A stretch of DNA of 64,000 bases, taken from contig CALULQ010000011.1 in NCBI GenBank assembly GCA_944321525.1, positions 32,217 to 96,216 of the forward strand, read 5' to 3'. Below the pieces are notes generated by a model, which saw only the letters and a program-made list of their open reading frames with translations, was not told the origin of the DNA and searched no databases. The translations under genes and the position numbers were made by a program. The stretch comes from an uncultured Paraprevotella sp. Lineage in GTDB: Bacteria; Bacteroidota; Bacteroidia; Bacteroidales; Bacteroidaceae. Of the stretch, positions 26,196 to 34,203 are shown piece by piece (the stretch's first letter is position 1; every line of letters starts with the position of its first letter).

Positions 26196-26225
26196 AACGG
26201 GCGCACGCCTTGCGGAGCTCCGGAA

Positions 26226-26292
26226 CGTGCTTTCCGCAAAGCACTCGAGTACTCTGCGGAAAGTACTCGAGTACCGAGCGCAGAGTACGCCG
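26226..26292. repeat. Intergenic palindromic repeat, copy 2 (double core)
   Basis: Contains GCACTCGAGTACTC and AAGTACTCGAGTACC in tandem, flanked by CTTTCCGC, CTGCGGA and CGCAGAGTACG. It sits between the beta-helix gene and the regulator gene. Confidence 0.8.
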
Positions 26293-26401: not shown

Positions 26402-29400
26402 ATGACGAACAAACTGCTGCCGGCCCTTTCCCTGCTGCTCGTTGCCTGCTGCGCCTGCGCGCTGAAGGCCTAGGAACTGGTGCACTACGGGCTGGACGAC
26501 GGGCTCTCCAGCACGGAAATCACAGCCATCTGCGAGGACGACAACTACATCTGGATTGCCACCGAGGACGGACTCAACCGCTTCGACGGGCATCACTTCA
26601 AAGTGTACAAGCCCGGCAAAGGAGGCGGAAACGGATTGAGGCACAGCCACATCGAGACGCTCTTCGTCGACTCGGGAGGACTGCTGTGGATTGGTTTCAA
26701 ATCCGGCGGGGTGGACGTCTACAATCCGTACACGGGGCGGTTCACCCCTCTCGACAGCCTGGTCGGGCAACCCGTACCCCGACGGATTTTCTCCATCTTC
26801 GAAGACTCCGGCCACAACATCTGGCTGGGCGGCTGGGAAGAAAGGATATGCAGGCTGACGCCCGACGACAAGGAGCGCAGCAGCTTCACCGCGACCTACA
26901 GCGACCGGGCCTGCATCGCCTCCAGCTTTGCCGAGAAGCCCAAGGGGCACATCTGGATTGGCACCTACACGGGGCTCGTCCGCTACGACGCCCAAAAGCA
27001 GGAATGGGAAAGCATGCCGGCGGGAGACCGGGTCGTCACGGACCTGTACGACACGGGAGAGCCCCGCACGCTCTACTATTCGTCATGGGACAACGCGCTG
27101 CACAAGCTGGATTGGACCGACGGCCCGGAGCGCATACAGACCACGCGGCTCCACGACGTCGGCACCCCCGTCTTCTGCCTGCTGGGCTCCGGCGGGCGGC
27201 TCCTTGCCGGCACATGGGGCGACGGGGTGAAGGTGTGCGGCAAGGACGGCGGGCGGCCGCTCCCGCTCCCGGGAACGGAACACTGGGGGACGACGTTCGT
27301 CTATGCCCTCTTCAAGGACAGGGCCGGTAACATTTGGATCGGCTTCTACGGGAAGGGCTTGTACAAATACACCGACCGCGACCGGGGAACCAGCCGGCTG
27401 ACCGCCAGCCCCGTGCCCCACTCGCCCGTCAGCTCGATTGCCGGGCAGCAGGACCGGCTGCTGCTGGGGACGTTGGGAGACGGCATGTATGCCTACGACA
27501 TGGAGACCGGCGACATGAGGGAGTGCTACAAGACGGGCAACAAGGAGAGCGACCACATCCTGGCCATCAAACAATACGGCGACCTCACCCTCGTGGGCCA
27601 CGACGGGACGGGGCTGCTCTATTCGTTCGGCAGCGGGGACGGCTCCCGCCCCCAGTGGAAAGAGTTCCGGGCCGGCAAGGAACTGGTAAAGGCCACGGCC
27701 TTCTGCTTCGACGGCGACAGGGTGTGGGTCGGTACGAAACAAAACGGGCTGATGTCGGTCGGCGTCGACGGCCGGACGAAAGAGATGACGGGCTTCGCCG
27801 TACATGAATCTTCCGGGCGGGAACGCATAAACGCCATCGTCCCTTACCGCGACGAACGGCTCTTCATCGCCTCCTACAGCGGGCTGGCAGTCTTCGACAA
27901 GTCGGAGCAGCGGGCCGTGGGGCGCAAGGTCATCGACGACGAAACTGTCTACTCCATCATCGAAGACCGACCGGGCCGTTGCTGGTGGGTCGGCACGTCC
28001 GGCAGCCTGCTGAAGATGGTGCAGCGGGGCGACTCCCTGCACATCTCGCTCGCCTTCCCCTCCTATCCGTTGCCGCAGGGAGCCGTCAAGTCCCTCTTGC
28101 TCGACAGCAACCACAATCTGTGGTTCTTCATCGGCGACAGGGTGTTCTGCCACATCGACAGCGAGCACCGCCTCTGCGAGCCCGACATCGGACATTGGGG
28201 CAACCTCACCATCCTCACGGCCGAGAAGGTGCTTCGCGGCGGAAGGGAATACATCTTGTGCGGCGACACGGAGCAGGTCATCGCCATAGACACAGAAAAG
28301 GCCCTGAACCAGAAGGACGAGACGCGGCTCATACTGACCGACCTGGAGGTGGACCACCGGAAAGTGCAGGCGGGCGACACCTTGGCCCGCCGCGTCGTCC
28401 TGACGGAAAACCCAGAATACGCCCACGCCATGACCCTGCCCCATGATGCCAAATGGATTTCGCTGGCCTTCACGGAAACGGGCGAGACCGGCTACCGCAA
28501 CAAATACTTGTACAGGATGGCCGGCTTCACGGACGAATGGCAACATTTCGACGCGTCCGTCCCCCTGACCTTCTCGCGGCTCAATCCCGGGAAATATGCC
28601 TTGGAAATCAAGAGATACGACGAAGCGCCCGACGCGGGGCCGTGCTGGGCCATGGACATCACCGTCGTCCCGCCTTGGTGGAAGACGCCGTTGTTCCGCG
28701 CCGCCGTGGCCCTCGCCGTCCTGCTGGCCGTCGTGTCCGCCGTGCGCCTGGTCATCCTGCGCAACAAGAAGGAGAACCTGCGGAAACTGCGGGCGATGGA
28801 GACGTTGAAGAAAGAAGAACTGCTGAAAGAGAAGGAAAGCTTCTTCGACAGTCTGGGACACGACCTCATCACGCCCTTGTCGCTGATTCTGGCGCCGGCC
28901 AACGACCTGCTGCGCGAAACCGACGAGACGGACGCGCGGCATGAGAAACTGTCCATCATCTCCAAGAACGCCACGTTCCTGTCCGACCTGTTCTCCACGG
29001 TTCTCGACTTCAAGCGCGTGGAGCTCTCCGACATGGCGGTCTGCAGGCGGAACGTCGAGGCCGTGTCGTTCTGCCGCACCATCGTCAACGCGTTCAACTA
29101 TCTGGCGGATTCCAAGCAGATTCAGCTGGACTTCCAATCCGCCATCCCCTCCGCGCACGTATGGATCGACCAGGTGAAATTTGAACGGATCCTGTACAAC
29201 CTCCTGAGCAACGCCGTCAAGTACACTCCCCACCAAGGCCGCGTGTCCGTGGCATTGGAATATGCGGACGGCCTGCTGGCCGTGTCCGTCAAAGACACCG
29301 ATCCGGGCATCAACCCGTCGCACCAGGCCGCGGTGTTCGACAAGTTCTACCGCGAGCCCCAATACGACAAGGAGAACAGCCCCGGCGGACTGGGCTTGGG

Positions 29401-30343
29401 GCTATACGTCGTGAAGAAGTTCGTCGCCGCCATGGACGGAACGGTCTCCGTCTGTTCGCGCCCCGGCGAAGGCACCACCCTGTGCGTGAAACTGCCGGCA
29501 GAACAAGCCGAAAGCCGGCAGTCGGCGGCCGACATCCCCGAACCCGACCCGCAAGCCAACGACACGGCCGGCCATGCCACCATTCTGCTGGTGGAGGACA
29601 ACGAGCAAATCCTCAACTACCTTGCCGGCCAATTGGCGGGACACTTCAACATCGTGACCGCCACCAACGGGGAAGAGGCCCTGGAACAGACCGAACGCCA
29701 CCTCCCCGAAATCATCATATCGGACATCATCATGCCCGGCATGGACGGCCTGGAACTGTGCCGGCACATCAAGGAAAACCCGCTCTACGCCGACATCTTC
29801 ATGATACTGCTCACCGCAAAGACGTCGGCGGAAGACGAACTGAAAGGCTACAAGGGAGGCGCCGACATTTACATCAGGAAGCCTTTCGACACCGCCGCAC
29901 TGGCCAGCCAAATCTCGAACATCCTGAACACGCGCCAGAAACGGAAAGAACAACTGCTGAAAAGCCTGACGGCGCAAGGCCACGCCCCCGTGGAGTTCAA
30001 CTCCAAGGAAGTGTTCCTGCAGCAGGCCATGAAAGTGATAGAAGAAAACCTGGACAAGGCCGACTTCAACATCGAAGAGTTCGCGGCCGCCATGAACATC
30101 AGCAAGACCGTCCTCCACAAGAAATTCAAGATGCTCATCGGACAGACGCCCAACCAGTTCATCCGGGCCGTCAGAATCAGGAAAGCGTCGGAACTGCTGG
30201 AAAGCACCGACTTGTCGGTCACCGAAATCGCCTACCTGACCGGCTTCAACCAGGCCCACTATTTCATCAAGTGCTTCAAGGAAGTGTATGATGAAACGCC
30301 CAAGAACTTCCGTGAACGGAAAAGGAAAGGGCCGAAGACCTGA
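26402..30343 (+). CDS. Hybrid two-component system regulator, in-frame TAG at codon 24
   Basis: From the ATG at 26402 the frame encodes a signal peptide (MTNKLLPALSLLLVACCACA) and then a TAG stop at 26471-26473, after which the frame stays open for about 1290 residues. The rest is a classic HTCS: propeller repeats (LVHYGLDDGLSSTEI, NYIWIATEDGLNRFDG), Y_Y_Y domain, a membrane segment near residues 765-787, HisKA with GHDLITPLSL, HATPase with LLSNAVKYT and GGLGLGLYVVKKF, a receiver (LLVEDNE, IISDIIMPGMDG) and an AraC-type HTH. It would sense a periplasmic oligosaccharide and activate the neighbouring hydrolases. The TAG probably replaced CAG (A-QELVHY). GTG at 26480 could restart translation without the signal. 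Confidence 0.85.
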
Positions 30344-30422: not shown

Positions 30423-30887
30423 TTATAGTCCCAATTCATTCATGACATGCCTCACTCCCTCGATTGTCTCCGTGTCCTGCGAAATCTGCGCAATCCGCAT
30501 CGCCTTCCTGAACACATCGCCCAGATAGTTGCGGTCGCGGATTTCCGCCAACGAATCCAAGGTGCGGTTCAGCTCACGCTCCGGGTCATGCGTCATGGAG
30601 ACTTTCACGATCCTCTCCACCTCCGGACGGGACAACCCCAGACTTTGGATTGTCGACTGGACGATGGCATTCGCCTCATCGCTGAATGCGCTCAACGGGG
30701 AAGCCCCTTGCACTAAAGCAAGAAACTTCACGATGGCGTATTTTTGGTTCGTCAGCAAATCCTTTGCCGGGTTTGTGACCACGGCTGGCCTATTCGCGAA
30801 CTTCCTCTCCGACTTATCCGCACTCCTATGAAGCGCAAAAGCCGCTACCGCCATCAAGGCGGCCAAAATGAACAAAAAGACTTCCAT
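30423..30887 (-). CDS. Membrane-anchored protein, possibly TerB-like
   Basis: The start at 30887 (MEVFLFILAALMAVAAFAL) is chosen because GGAGCAGGA precedes it; the earlier TTG start would only add residues of the upstream gene's end. A single membrane helix is followed by a soluble helical domain of about 110 residues (KYAIVKFLALVQGASPLS, RPEVERIVKVSM, KAMRIAQISQ). The helix pattern recalls the TerB/DjlA N-terminal fold by eye, without a decisive motif. It is the last of a cluster of eight overlapping genes on this strand. Confidence 0.7.
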   Translation of the reverse strand: MEVFLFILAALMAVAAFALHRSADKSERKFANRPAVVTNPAKDLLTNQKYAIVKFLALVQGASPLSAFSDEANAIVQSTIQSLGLSRPEVERIVKVSMTHDPERELNRTLDSLAEIRDRNYLGDVFRKAMRIAQISQDTETIEGVRHVMNELGL

Positions 30888-30897
30888 TCCTGCTCCT

Positions 30898-31074
30898 TCA
30901 ATCAAGACCCTTCATGTATTCGTTATATTTCCCGCGCCGGTAAACCACCATTATAATCATCGGGAAGAAGATGGCGCAGGCGACGACGTCCACGACCCAG
31001 CTCATCGCGCTACGGTTGTAGTCCACTTTTTCGTTGTGTCGGCGAATCTTTTCCCTAAGCCTGTCCTCGTCCAT
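30898..31074 (-). CDS. Small membrane protein (58 aa)
   Basis: A 58-residue product: a charged N-terminal helix (MDEDRLREKIRRHNEKVDYN), one hydrophobic span (AMSWVVDVVACAIFFPMIIM) and a basic tail. Its ATG lies within the 3' end of the previous gene (31055-31264), and its stop is 10 bases before the next start, so it belongs to the cluster. Function unknown; too short for most gene lists. Confidence 0.65.
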   Translation of the reverse strand: MDEDRLREKIRRHNEKVDYNRSAMSWVVDVVACAIFFPMIIMVVYRRGKYNEYMKGLD

Positions 31075-31264
31075 CTTCCTGTCCTCCTTTCCTGTTCCAG
31101 TCCTCCTTTTCCTTTTGTTCCCTCTCCTTCGTCTTCCCGCGGTGCACGAGATAAGCCCCCAAGCCTGTCCAGAAAAGAGGCCCTACGACACTCGTGCCGC
31201 CCACCAGGCTTCCCACGAGACTCAAGATGCCGAGCACCAAAACAATCCAACCTGCGATTTTCAT
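31055..31264 (-). CDS. Small membrane protein (69 aa)
   Basis: A 69-residue protein with two hydrophobic spans (AGWIVLVLGILSLVGSLVGG and VVGPLFWTGLGAYLVH) and a highly charged C-terminal tail (RGKTKEREQKEKEDW). The ATG overlaps the stop of the gene before it (ATGA). It may be an integral inner-membrane subunit of the complex made by this operon, as suggested by the packing. No family recognised. Confidence 0.65.
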   Translation of the reverse strand: MKIAGWIVLVLGILSLVGSLVGGTSVVGPLFWTGLGAYLVHRGKTKEREQKEKEDWNRKGGQEDGRGQA

Positions 31265-31464
31265 TTGTCCTTCCGTTTAATGTCTATAAAATCCACGTCA
31301 TTCTCAATCTTTTTCGAGCACAAGGTCACGATAAGCCCCAGGAACAAGTTGATCACCGAGAGGAAGAAGGCCCACCCGAAACCGATTTTGCGCTTGCGCC
31401 CCAGGCAACCAACACCGTAAGCCAACGCCAATCCAATCACAAAGAAAAAGAACGTCTCCATCAT
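31261..31464 (-). CDS. Small membrane protein (67 aa)
   Basis: The start is at 31464 (MMETFFFFVIGLALAYGVGC), directly after the stop of the J-domain gene (TAATG) with GGAGGAG upstream. Two hydrophobic stretches are separated by a basic loop (GRKRKIGFGW), followed by a soluble tail (CSKKIENDVDFIDIKRKDK). A small integral membrane protein; no family recognised. Confidence 0.65.
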   Translation of the reverse strand: MMETFFFFVIGLALAYGVGCLGRKRKIGFGWAFFLSVINLFLGLIVTLCSKKIENDVDFIDIKRKDK

Positions 31465-31877
31465 TACTCCTCCTCGATTTTGACTCCCAACTCGCATTCC
31501 GCCCTCTCCTTCAGGCCACGCAAGGCGGCATAATCGTGCTTGTGCCTCACCAGCAGACCGAAGATTTCCGTGGCCTTGGCCGCCAGCCGCCCGTCCCCTG
31601 CGAAGCGGTCCGGGTGGCACACCTTCTTCAATCCGTCATACAAAGCCTTGGCCTTGAAAGAGCTGTCAATCACATTTGAAAAGTCGACATCCCCCTCGCG
31701 GAGAATCCTCTCCTTCACCTTTTCCCTTTCCGGCCGGCACCGGCCGCGCAGGAGCAAAAGGCGCACGCACACGAACACGAGCAGGACGAACTCCACTCCC
31801 GCCACATACATCCACACGTCGGGGGAAGCCGGCGATGCGGGCACCGCGTTTCTCACGGCTTGGATACTATCCATCAT
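31464..31877 (-). CDS. Membrane-anchored J-domain-like protein
   Basis: A 137-residue product from the ATG at 31877, preceded by a GGAGGG ribosome site; the longer open frame lies in the upstream gene. An N-terminal membrane helix (VWMYVAGVEFVLLVFVCV) is followed by a J-domain-like unit: LYDGLKKVCHPDRFAGDG with the HPD tripeptide essential for stimulating Hsp70 ATPases, then AAKATEIFGLLVRHKHDYAA. It would recruit DnaK to the membrane. The same unit appears twice, without HPD, in the protein at 32324-32962. A specific client is unknown. Confidence 0.75.
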   Translation of the reverse strand: MMDSIQAVRNAVPASPASPDVWMYVAGVEFVLLVFVCVRLLLLRGRCRPEREKVKERILREGDVDFSNVIDSSFKAKALYDGLKKVCHPDRFAGDGRLAAKATEIFGLLVRHKHDYAALRGLKERAECELGVKIEEE

Positions 31878-31902
31878 GCAAACCCTCCTTTCTTTTATCT
31901 GA

Positions 31903-32304
31903 TCACTCAATGAACTTTCCAATGTTCGCATAGTCGGCAAGGCACCAGCGGCAGCCGTAGCGCCCGTGGTCGCCGTGCACCTCCAGCGTGTCCCACCCCA
32001 GCACGACCAAGCGCCGCACCAAGGTCTCATTCGCCAGGACCACCTCGCCGATAAAGACGATTTCCGCCTTCGTCAGCTCGCGCCCCGCCAAGGCCTGGAT
32101 CCGGAAGCCGGTGTTCATCCACGCCGAGAACTCATGCCGGTAGGCCGGCAATCCCCTCGAGATGCTGGCCTTCAGGGCCGTCGGGGCCTGCCCCGAGACG
32201 AAGGCCTCGCGGGCCGTCTCGTTGAAGCTCCTCACCAGCCTTCCCCGCTCGCTCCGGTCCTTGAACCACTCTACGACTCTGTTCCACGTATTTTCCAACA
32301 ACAT
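31903..32304 (-). CDS. Protein of unknown function (133 aa)
   Basis: A soluble, mixed alpha/beta protein (MLLENTWNRVVEWFKDRSER at the start; HGDHGRYGCRWCLADYANIG at the end). The region RELTKAEIVFIGEVVLANET and the C-terminal HGDHGRYGCRWC hint at a metal-binding or ligand-binding fold with one C-x2-C pair, but nothing is certain. It lies 25 bases upstream of the J-domain protein and 19 bases after the duplicated J-like protein, all in the same direction, so it is part of the same operon. Confidence 0.65.
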   Translation of the reverse strand: MLLENTWNRVVEWFKDRSERGRLVRSFNETAREAFVSGQAPTALKASISRGLPAYRHEFSAWMNTGFRIQALAGRELTKAEIVFIGEVVLANETLVRRLVVLGWDTLEVHGDHGRYGCRWCLADYANIGKFIE

Positions 32305-32323
32305 AATCCCAATCCGTTATTCA

Positions 32324-32962
32324 TTACAACACGCCGCCCGCTATCATGGCGGCAAACACATATACCATCACGATTATCCCTCCCAGAAGCCCTATTGCCA
32401 GCAGGAACCAATTCACGTCGTCCCCCTCCGGCGGTTCTCCCTCCGGACCAAGGCCTATCCCCAAAGGCGCCCCCTCCTCTTCTGCCTTTGCCTTCAGGCG
32501 CTCCAAGGCCACCACGTCGTCCGCATGGAGTAGCACCTGATTGTACAACTCGTTCGCGAAACGGAATTTCTCCCGTTCCCCAGCGAAAGCGGCCGGGTTC
32601 AATGCACGGACCAGCTCCCCATACAAGTCTTCGGTAGCAAACCTGACGCCCAGCTCGGCCATGGCCCGGGCGCGAAGCCCCTTCAGGGCCCCCTCGTCGT
32701 CCTTGTGCTCTTCCGCCAGGGTATAGATGTCGTTCGCAGCCTCGAGCCTTTGATATTCATAGTCATCCATGAACTCTTTGGGGTTGCACTTCGTACGCAA
32801 CTCCACATACAGCGAGGCATAATGCCCGGGAACGAACTTCGGCCGCGGAGTTTCCTCCTTAGGGTCGTCCCATCGCATGTTCATCCCCGGCCTCTTCCGC
32901 GGACGCATCTCTTCGAATACGATCTCCTCTTCTTCCATCGCCCTCAGGTCTATAAGTCCCAT
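32324..32962 (-). CDS. Tandem degenerate J-like repeats with C-terminal membrane anchor
   Basis: The start at 32962 (MGLIDLRAMEEEEIVFEE) overlaps the upstream stop. Two units of the same design follow: LYVELRTKCNPKEFMDDYEY ... ALKGLRARAMAELGVRF and LYGELVRALNPAAFAGEREK ... ALERLKAKAEEEGAPL. They align with the J unit at 31464-31877 (LYDGLKKVCHPDRFAG) but have NPK and NPA in place of HPD, so they probably bind a partner without stimulating Hsp70. The C-terminus (VNWFLLAIGLLGGIIVMVY) is a membrane anchor. Together with its neighbour it may form a scaffold complex. Function is inferred. Confidence 0.65.
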   Translation of the reverse strand: MGLIDLRAMEEEEIVFEEMRPRKRPGMNMRWDDPKEETPRPKFVPGHYASLYVELRTKCNPKEFMDDYEYQRLEAANDIYTLAEEHKDDEGALKGLRARAMAELGVRFATEDLYGELVRALNPAAFAGEREKFRFANELYNQVLLHADDVVALERLKAKAEEEGAPLGIGLGPEGEPPEGDDVNWFLLAIGLLGGIIVMVYVFAAMIAGGVL

Positions 32963-33984
32963 TCCACCAGTTCCCTCGGCAACCGCACCCGCTTGGTGCA
33001 TCCGCGGCCGCCGGTCACATAATAATACTCCGCCAGGCGGTCGTCGAACTCACGCACGAACGCCTCGCGGATGCGGGCGCACTTCTCGTTTATCGAGTTC
33101 TTGCACGGGTCCGTCACGTCCATGATGCTCCGCATGACGGCCTCGCCGGAATCACGCCCGCTGAGGTGCGAGTAAATCTCGTAAAGCTCGCGGCGGAAGT
33201 CAGGCAACGACTTGAACACCAACCCCTCGGGATGGCGCAGGAAGAGGAAATAGACGGCCTTGACCAATGGCGTCATCCTGATTTCCAGATTCCCATAGTC
33301 AGGCAACAGGATCTGCCCTCGCGAGGTGACGCGCAGGCGGCTCAGCTTGATCTGGGGTTGCAGCAGCGAGTGCAGCACCATGTCGTTCACTCCATACTGC
33401 CTCAGGCGACGTATCTTCTCCGAAACGTCGGCAATCAGTTCCATCACCTCTTCCGGAAAGTGCATGTCGGCAAAATCGTCCGGCTCCAAGTCCGGCTCAA
33501 TGGAAGACGTGGCGCAAAAGAACTCGGAATCGGCCGCCCCCTTTTCGTACTCATTCAGATAACGGAAAAAGGCGTCGAAGAGCGGGCGCAGCTCATGCTC
33601 ATGCCCCTTCAGCCGCAAGGCGTGGAACGTGTGTCCGCCTGCGTCCTGTCCGCCGTAGAGCAGCAGGGAGGGCGCCAGCTCGTAGCCCCGCTTCACGAAA
33701 GGGCGCAGGCAGTCGCTCCCCAGCGACTGCCCCGCAGAGTCCGCCCGATAGGGAGTGTAATAACGCACGAACTCCGGCCCGCCCAGTCTGCGGGAGATGC
33801 AGGGGAAGTAGCAGAACTCGTAGCCCACATTGGCGAAGCCAGTCCGCAGGCCGCCATAATTATTGCGCAGGAACTCGTTGATTGCCGGCTCGTAGGCCGA
33901 CTCCACATAAACCACCTGCTTCCCTTCGGGCCGGAAAGGCAAGGAAGGCTTGAAACGCACGATTTCTGTCTGGACTCTCTGCAT
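32950..33984 (-). CDS. Soluble protein of unknown function (344 aa), first gene of the cluster
   Basis: A protein of 344 residues starting MQRVQTEIVRFKPSLPF. Its C-terminal half (RLRVTSRGQILLPDYGNLEI, then MTPLVKAVYFLFLRHPEGLV and FKSLPDFRRELYEIYSHLSG) looks like a small winged-helix or all-helical domain that I have seen in other Bacteroidetes proteins, but I cannot name the family. It may be the effector or regulator of the J-domain cluster that follows: its last codons overlap the next gene. It is preceded by a palindromic repeat and no obvious promoter. Confidence 0.7.
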   Translation of the reverse strand: MQRVQTEIVRFKPSLPFRPEGKQVVYVESAYEPAINEFLRNNYGGLRTGFANVGYEFCYFPCISRRLGGPEFVRYYTPYRADSAGQSLGSDCLRPFVKRGYELAPSLLLYGGQDAGGHTFHALRLKGHEHELRPLFDAFFRYLNEYEKGAADSEFFCATSSIEPDLEPDDFADMHFPEEVMELIADVSEKIRRLRQYGVNDMVLHSLLQPQIKLSRLRVTSRGQILLPDYGNLEIRMTPLVKAVYFLFLRHPEGLVFKSLPDFRRELYEIYSHLSGRDSGEAVMRSIMDVTDPCKNSINEKCARIREAFVREFDDRLAEYYYVTGGRGCTKRVRLPRELVEWDL

Positions 33985-34142: not shown

Positions 34143-34203
34143 GTACTTTGCGGAGAGTACTCGAGTACTTGCCGCAGAGTACGATTCGGCATTCCGCAAG
34201 GCG
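34143..34203. repeat. Intergenic palindromic repeat, copy 3
   Basis: GTACTTTGCGGAGAGTACTC, then GAGTACTTGCCGCAGAGTACG. Same orientation as copy 1, with only the change AAAG to AGAG in the left arm. Confidence 0.85.

What the first reader, a model, noticed from the sequence alone, without database searches (positions are those of the whole stretch)
30423..33984. Operon with one intact and two degenerate J-domain-like units
The proteins at 31464-31877 and 32324-32962 share a unit starting LY-x-E/G-L. One copy has HPD (LKKVCHPDRFAG), two have NPK and NPA. Three tiny membrane proteins, a soluble 133-residue protein, a possible TerB-like protein and a 344-residue protein complete the eight-gene run, with overlapping starts and stops. 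TerB and J units are joined in DjlA-type proteins, so the cluster looks like a split membrane Hsp70-recruiting complex. I do not know it as a described system.
Basis: partly seen in the sequence, partly recalled or inferred. Interest (0 to 1): 0.75.

Follow-up and report, generated by a model that had tools for sequence, protein, structure and literature searches.

The report
Membrane J-protein operon with pseudo-J partners
Many Bacteroidales carry a gene cluster in which a small protein with the HPD signature of Hsp70 helpers sits beside the same unknown partner in nearly every genome examined, and often beside a related protein that has lost the signature; together they are predicted to bring the chaperone DnaK to the inner membrane, a layout that would resemble the Pam18/Pam16 pair of mitochondria.

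Summary
The observation largely holds. The HPD protein (J1) is a divergent J-domain protein by sequence: HPD is kept in 43 of 44 relatives, helix II is basic as in DnaJ, and nearly all of its weak PDB profile matches are J-domains. It lies beside the 133-residue protein in 44 of 45 loci, mostly Bacteroidales; the other locus ends at the contig edge. The two NP units are homologous to J1 (hhalign 99.3% and 97.8%) and look like degenerate J units. Flanking charges predict that J1's J-domain and the units face the cytoplasm. In five loci where J1 has no membrane helix, a tail-anchored J2 is present.

Not supported: the TerB call for 30423-30905, an eight-gene unit (the core is two genes, with J2, m1 and m2 frequent), and a split DjlA. 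AlphaFold gives J1 a helix-HPD-helix bundle without a convincing overlay on a known J-domain. The partner has no recognisable fold.

My mechanism is DnaK recruitment by J1 with J2 as HPD-less anchor or regulator. It is inferred, not shown.

The parts
32950..33984 (-). g344: 344-residue protein without a strong membrane helix; its C-terminal ~165 residues (LPDYxNMEIxMxPLxKAVYFLFLRHPEG...NSINEKCARIREAF) are a widespread module; possibly regulatory (guess); optional member
   Evidence: 82 of 301 family genomes match; near the core in 6 of 45 loci; no Pfam or NCBIfam family above cut-off, no convincing PDB match
32324..32962 (-). J2: two tandem degenerate J-like units (CNPKEF at residues 59-64, LNPAAF at 121-126) and a C-terminal membrane helix
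   Evidence: hhalign to J1 99.3% and 97.8%; 110 J2-like proteins, 218 units, 8 of them HPD, all in unit 1; upstream of g133 on the same strand in 19 of 45 loci
31903..32304 (-). g133: 133-residue alpha/beta protein, near-constant neighbour of J1, fold not recognised
31464..31877 (-). J1: N-terminal membrane helix (model residues 19-46) plus C-terminal HPD J-domain-like region (HPD = residues 88-90)
   Evidence: HPD in 43 of 44 relatives; H, P and D invariant in the 48 aligned; PF00226 in 17 of 48, best E 7.5e-4; PDB profile hits; model
31261..31464 (-). m1: 67-residue hydrophobic protein with a charged tail
   Evidence: within 3.5 kb of g133 on the same strand in 22 of 45 loci
31055..31264 (-). 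m2: 69-residue protein with hydrophobic start and charged tail
   Evidence: within 3.5 kb of g133 on the same strand in 22 of 45 loci
30898..31074 (-). m3: 58-residue protein with one hydrophobic stretch; lineage-specific
   Evidence: 2 of 45 loci
30423..30887 (-).
   Evidence: 35 matches, its own entry counted; aligned; TerB test negative; 2 of 45 loci

Best explanation
This is a conserved, mostly Bacteroidales gene cluster whose HPD-bearing protein J1 is predicted to be an inner-membrane J-domain co-chaperone that would recruit DnaK to its near-constant neighbour g133, while the related HPD-less protein J2 would likely act as its membrane anchor or brake. Shown: J1 and g133 are adjacent in 44 of 45 loci, HPD is conserved, the J2 units are homologous to J1 but lack HPD and the basic helix II, and J1 and J2 have membrane helices at opposite ends. 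Predicted from flanking charges: both soluble parts lie in the cytoplasm. Inferred: that J1 binds and stimulates DnaK, that g133 binds J1 as client or adaptor (as AtcC binds AtcJ), that J2 binds J1 (as Pam16 binds Pam18), and that the small membrane proteins m1 and m2 belong to the same complex.
For: HPD in 43 of 44 J1 proteins of L076-L120. Of the 22 PDB matches of the J1 profile at E<=1, 19 are named DnaJ, Sec63 or auxilin, two (1iur, 2ej7) I recall as J-domains and one is ribosomal L31; the best E is 0.0047, and the three alignments printed put HPD on HPD. PF00226 is the Pfam family matched by most members, 17 of 48. hhalign J1 versus 28 canonical J-domains scores 32.4 against a shuffle maximum of 14.3 (0 of 59). 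Net charge of the 15 residues before the motif: J1 +2.15 (n=48), canonical +3.21 (n=28), J2 unit 1 -2.24 (n=21), unit 2 +0.12 (n=17). K+R beside the J1 membrane helix: 0.48 before and 5.85 after, higher after in 27 of 27; beside the J2 tail helix 3.28 before and 0.56 after, n=18. The five loci with an uncut J1 lacking a membrane helix but with J2 (L078, L079, L082, L087, L097) all have a tail-anchored J2; a sixth in that class, L104, has a cut J1 ORF. Eight J2-like proteins keep HPD in unit 1, consistent with descent from HPD units. The genome has one full-length Hsp70.
Confidence: 0.5

Rival explanations
1. AtcJ-like two-protein module: J1 is a dedicated J-protein that delivers or holds g133, as AtcJ binds AtcC in Shewanella; J2, m1 and m2 are loosely attached accessories and J2 does not regulate J1.
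For: Only g133-J1 is near-invariant (44 of 45 loci; the 14 J1-type matches all have g133 beside them, one as a 54-residue fragment). 26 of 45 loci have no J2 on the scored strand. AtcJ precedent: PMC6715715, abstract start and passages.
Against: J2, in the 19 of 45 loci that have it, lies upstream on the same strand (only that strand was scored), is tail-anchored in the 18 tested, and its units are closer to J1 than to the canonical J-domains tested.
Confidence: 0.28
2. Accessory conflict or stress module: a mobile cassette that redirects DnaK under attack or stress, with variants wired to caspase and CHAT proteases.
For: Patchy: J1-profile matches in 17 of 399 family genomes, three of them probably J2-like or other matches; g133 in 3 of 395 genomes of the phylum sample, this one counted. 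A Parabacteroides plasmid record has g133-J1-m1-m2-J2 about 4 kb past an integrase gene. At L117 the pair lies downstream of CHAT-TPR, caspase and sigma-70 genes, and the caspase-like protein matches the PADLOC caspase model at E 1.2e-8. The stretch after the V-ATPase genes differs in five relatives. Phage Rki shows that a J-protein can redirect DnaK (PMC3486835, passages).
Against: The eight window proteins have no PADLOC match except PycTIR at E 0.011, 13.1 bits, for g133; no g133 found in the viral contig scan or the phage collection; the caspase link was seen only in distant, short-J1 loci.
Confidence: 0.13
3. Split DjlA: separated TerB and J parts that re-form a DjlA-type membrane complex.
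For: Membrane-anchored J-domain; TerB-like protein two genes upstream of the pair at L110.
Against: Window TerB label fails; a separate TerB-J frame exists in the genome.
Confidence: 0.05
4. HPD is incidental: J1 and J2 are repeats of a helical bundle that does not act on Hsp70.
For: Best structural matches are designed three-helix bundles.
Against: HPD kept in 43 of 44 while the paralogous J2 units vary at the same site; helix II is basic in J1, not in J2.
Confidence: 0.04

Closest known systems
Pam18 (Tim14) / Pam16 (Tim16) of the mitochondrial import motor
   Same: An HPD J-protein and a J-like protein lacking HPD at one membrane; PMC12953747 (passages) says Pam16 lacks HPD, forms a stable heterodimer with Pam18 and blocks its stimulation of mtHsp70.
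   Different: No Pfam family match of J1 or J2; J2 has two units in tandem and a C-terminal anchor; no counterpart of g133, m1 or m2 that I know of; no translocase gene was recognised nearby.
AtcJABC of Shewanella
   Same: Short operon-encoded J-protein with a dedicated unknown partner in the same operon (PMC6715715, abstract start and passages).
   Different: AtcJ is a J-domain plus a 21-residue extension; the passages name no membrane helix and no degenerate J paralogue; homology of AtcC or AtcB to g133 was not tested.
DjlA
   Same: Membrane J-protein; DjlA may give DnaK its membrane localisation (PMC3486835, passage).
   Different: No TerB in the chain or, as tested, in the window cluster; the genome has its own TerB-J frame.
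Sec63
   Same: Membrane-anchored J-domain; among the profile matches (E 0.15, profile positions 5-95).
   Different: Sec63 is over 600 residues, J1 137; only the anchor-plus-J stretch aligns.

Membership tests
J-domain (PF00226) | HPD tripeptide at the end of a helix with Y at -8 | tested here: met
   ALYDxLKxxCHPD; H, P and D invariant in the 48 aligned, which leave out L099; 43 of 44 loci with L099 counted
J-domain (PF00226) | Basic helix II | tested here: met
   mean +2.15 (n=48), canonical +3.21 (n=28)
J-domain (PF00226) | Sequence match to the curated profile | tested here: inconclusive
   window J1 none; 17 of 48 relatives at E<=1, best 7.5e-4
J-domain (PF00226) | Four-helix J fold overlay | tested here: inconclusive
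J-domain (PF00226) | Stimulates Hsp70 ATPase | not testable with these tools
   needs protein work
Degenerate J-like unit (J2 units) | Homologous to an HPD J unit, HPD lost | tested here: met
   hhalign to J1 99.3% and 97.8%; 8 of 218 units still HPD; direct match to canonical J-domains weak, 12.1% and 4.8%
Pam16/Pam18 | Match to a Pam16 or Tim14 sequence family | tested here: not met
   no Pfam match for J1 or J2 at E<=10
Pam16/Pam18 | Membrane HPD J-protein encoded with an HPD-less J-like protein | tested here: met
   works-like only
Pam16/Pam18 | Heterodimer through the J parts | not testable with these tools
   no complex prediction offered
DjlA | TerB domain with the J-domain | tested here: not met
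AtcJABC | Partner homologous to AtcC or AtcB | not tested
   sequences not fetched

The most novel reading that the evidence does not exclude
A bacterial counterpart of the Pam18/Pam16 switch: an HPD J-protein and its own HPD-less, charge-reversed paralogue, anchored by opposite ends in one membrane, gate DnaK recruitment to a dedicated partner (g133), with J1 able to give up its own anchor when J2 supplies it.
Probability: 0.28. Interest if true: 0.85.

Novelty: new variant of a known kind. Interest (0 to 1): 0.6.

Why it matters
J-proteins decide where Hsp70 works. None of the papers listed by my ten searches (listings capped, open-licence papers only) describes, by title or abstract start, a bacterial J-protein encoded with its own HPD-less paralogue. 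If the paralogue regulates J1, the pseudo-J regulator seen in mitochondrial import would also have a bacterial form that can be tested with simple genetics in gut commensals. None of the eight window proteins matches a Pfam or NCBIfam family above its cut-off.

Tried and rejected
TerB for 30423-30905: Pfam, PDB profile and hhalign all negative. Fold of g133: Foldseek against PDB and BFVD and VIA gave nothing convincing; absence of a listed family does not exclude it. Fold of J1: no J-domain at a convincing score. g344 as a known regulator: no convincing PDB or Pfam relative; the winged-helix idea is unproven. Phage origin: none found; PHROGs gave only two weak matches of unknown function for m1 and m2. 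Defence system: for the window proteins PADLOC gave only PycTIR at E 0.011 for g133. Clean empty site: not found; in the five relatives' stretches fetched (two of them under 2.7 kb) other ORFs follow the V-ATPase gene. First genome-contig scan with J2 found no relative.

Rows left out before counts: alignment A7 (48 rows) left out several loci, some near-duplicates, and L099, whose J1 reads HPN with a disrupted frame; the 43 of 44 count includes L099 as a miss and has no J1 for L091 (contig end). L111 and L112 carry nearly identical regions, so the 45 loci are not fully independent; they come from one degenerate peptide pattern (45 of 57 pattern matches confirmed). The 110 J2-like proteins include near-duplicates and the window protein more than once; the eight HPD ones look closely related and may be one lineage. 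The charge counts use 21 of 22 (unit 1) and 17 of 22 (unit 2) rows of A8, those matched by the motif pattern. J2 membrane helices were tested in 18 of 19 loci (not L091) and only for the J2 nearest to g133. In the TerB set, L180 is visibly a wrong reading frame. The output was cut in the middle.
Full report
WHAT IS THERE. The window lies in a 3.5 Mb genome of 79 contigs at G000:C11:32217-96216; homologues bear Prevotella and other Bacteroidales names. On the minus strand, from 33984 down to 30423, are eight ORFs with overlaps of 1-20 bp or gaps of 10-25 bp: g344, J2, g133, J1, m1, m2, m3 and a 154-residue protein. None matches a Pfam or NCBIfam family above its cut-off. They sit between a hybrid two-component regulator (26480-30343, plus strand) and V-type ATPase genes (34416 onward); these two names are my reading of the sequence, from recall.

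J2 CARRIES DEGENERATE J-LIKE UNITS. hhalign links J1 with unit 1 (99.3%) and unit 2 (97.8%), and the units with each other (98.8%), with the NP of J2 on the HP of J1. Direct comparison of the units with canonical J-domains is weak: 12.1% (0 of 59 shuffles as high) and 4.8% (1 of 59). In 110 J2-like proteins (84, the 17 rows of A6 and nine further ORFs) 218 units were found; 8 read HPD, all in unit 1, while NPx is the commonest kind. The eight, which look closely related, are consistent with descent from HPD units. J2 unit 1 also lacks the basic helix II (mean net charge -2.24 against +2.15 in J1 and +3.21 in canonical J-domains), even in the five A8 rows that keep HPD.

WHAT IS CONSERVED. A scan of the species-genome collection with a g133 pattern gave 45 loci, with titles from Prevotella, Parabacteroides, Alistipes, Muribaculaceae, Salinivirgaceae, Paludibacteraceae and others, three of them labelled Chlorobiaceae, Pseudopedobacter and Sphingobacteriia. 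J1 is adjacent in 44 of 45; the exception, L091, ends 245 bases after g133. J2 is upstream in 19, m1 and m2 are near in 22 each, the g344 family in 6, m3 in 2 and the TerB-labelled family in 2. Coming from the other side, J1-profile matches in 17 of 399 family genomes include 14 of J1 type, this genome counted, and all 14 have g133 beside them, one as a 54-residue fragment. The distribution is patchy: g133 in 3 of 395 genomes of the phylum sample, this one counted, and of 18 same-genus genomes only this one has the full-length J1 type and one has a short form. A Parabacteroides distasonis plasmid record carries g133-J1-m1-m2-J2 about 4 kb past a phage-type integrase gene. So the kept unit is g133-J1, often extended by J2, m1 and m2, not the whole eight.

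TOPOLOGY. K+R counts beside the J1 membrane helix average 0.48 on the N-side and 5.85 on the C-side (27 of 27 higher on the C-side), which predicts a cytoplasmic J-domain. The 18 J2 proteins tested all have a C-terminal membrane helix with 3.28 before and 0.56 after, which predicts cytoplasmic units. In L078, L079, L082, L087 and L097 J1 has no membrane helix and J2 has one. In L110-L120 J1 has none and no J2 was found.

MECHANISM. I commit to this: J1 recruits DnaK at the inner membrane and delivers it to, or holds it at, g133; J2 is a paralogue that has lost the DnaK-binding features and supplies anchoring or restraint. The first part follows known J-protein biology and the AtcJ precedent, where a short operon-encoded J-protein binds its dedicated partner AtcC (PMC6715715, abstract start and passages). 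The second follows Pam16, which lacks HPD, binds Pam18 and blocks its stimulation of mtHsp70 (PMC12953747, passages). No binding was tested here. Against the second part stand the 26 loci without J2 and the NP-unit proteins in stretches without g133.

THE DJLA READING. The 30423-30905 protein does not test as TerB and the genome has a separate 269-residue frame with adjacent TerB and J matches at C15:62549-63109. One distant locus, L110, does have a TerB-like protein upstream.

STANDING. Ten literature searches listed no paper that describes the arrangement by title or abstract start; listings were capped and the library holds open-licence papers only. I rate it a new variant of a known kind: a new dedicated J-protein module, with the pseudo-J regulator idea as its bold reading.

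Noticed in passing
window 8582, 26240, 26262, 34156, 44877 and genome-wide: A palindrome AGTACTCGAGTACT occurs 5 times in the window with up to one mismatch (mean 0.00 in shuffles) and 214 times exactly in the genome (0 for the reversed pattern); a 61-nt inverted pair at 26206-26266 and 34143-34203, 79% complementary, brackets the regulator gene and the cluster.
   Followed up: partly
L117, L118, L120: A distant form of g133-J1 lies at L117 in a gene run with CHAT-TPR, caspase, sigma-70, zinc-ribbon-like and M48 peptidase genes; L118 and L120 share the caspase and sigma clusters by blastp but were not scanned with Pfam.
   Followed up: partly
L035, L037-L040: Proteins of 418-499 residues carry tandem NP units fused to other parts, in stretches of about 3.3 kb without g133.
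   Followed up: no
window 32950-33984, residues 177-343: The C-terminal module of g344 is widespread in the family (82 of 301 genomes match g344), also in open frames of about 180-230 residues; unknown fold.
   Followed up: partly
window 31261-31464 and 31464-31877: The m1 tail (DVDFIDI) resembles the J1 segment before helix II (DVDFSNVI); similar in other loci by eye, so the m1 tail might mimic that segment.
   Followed up: no
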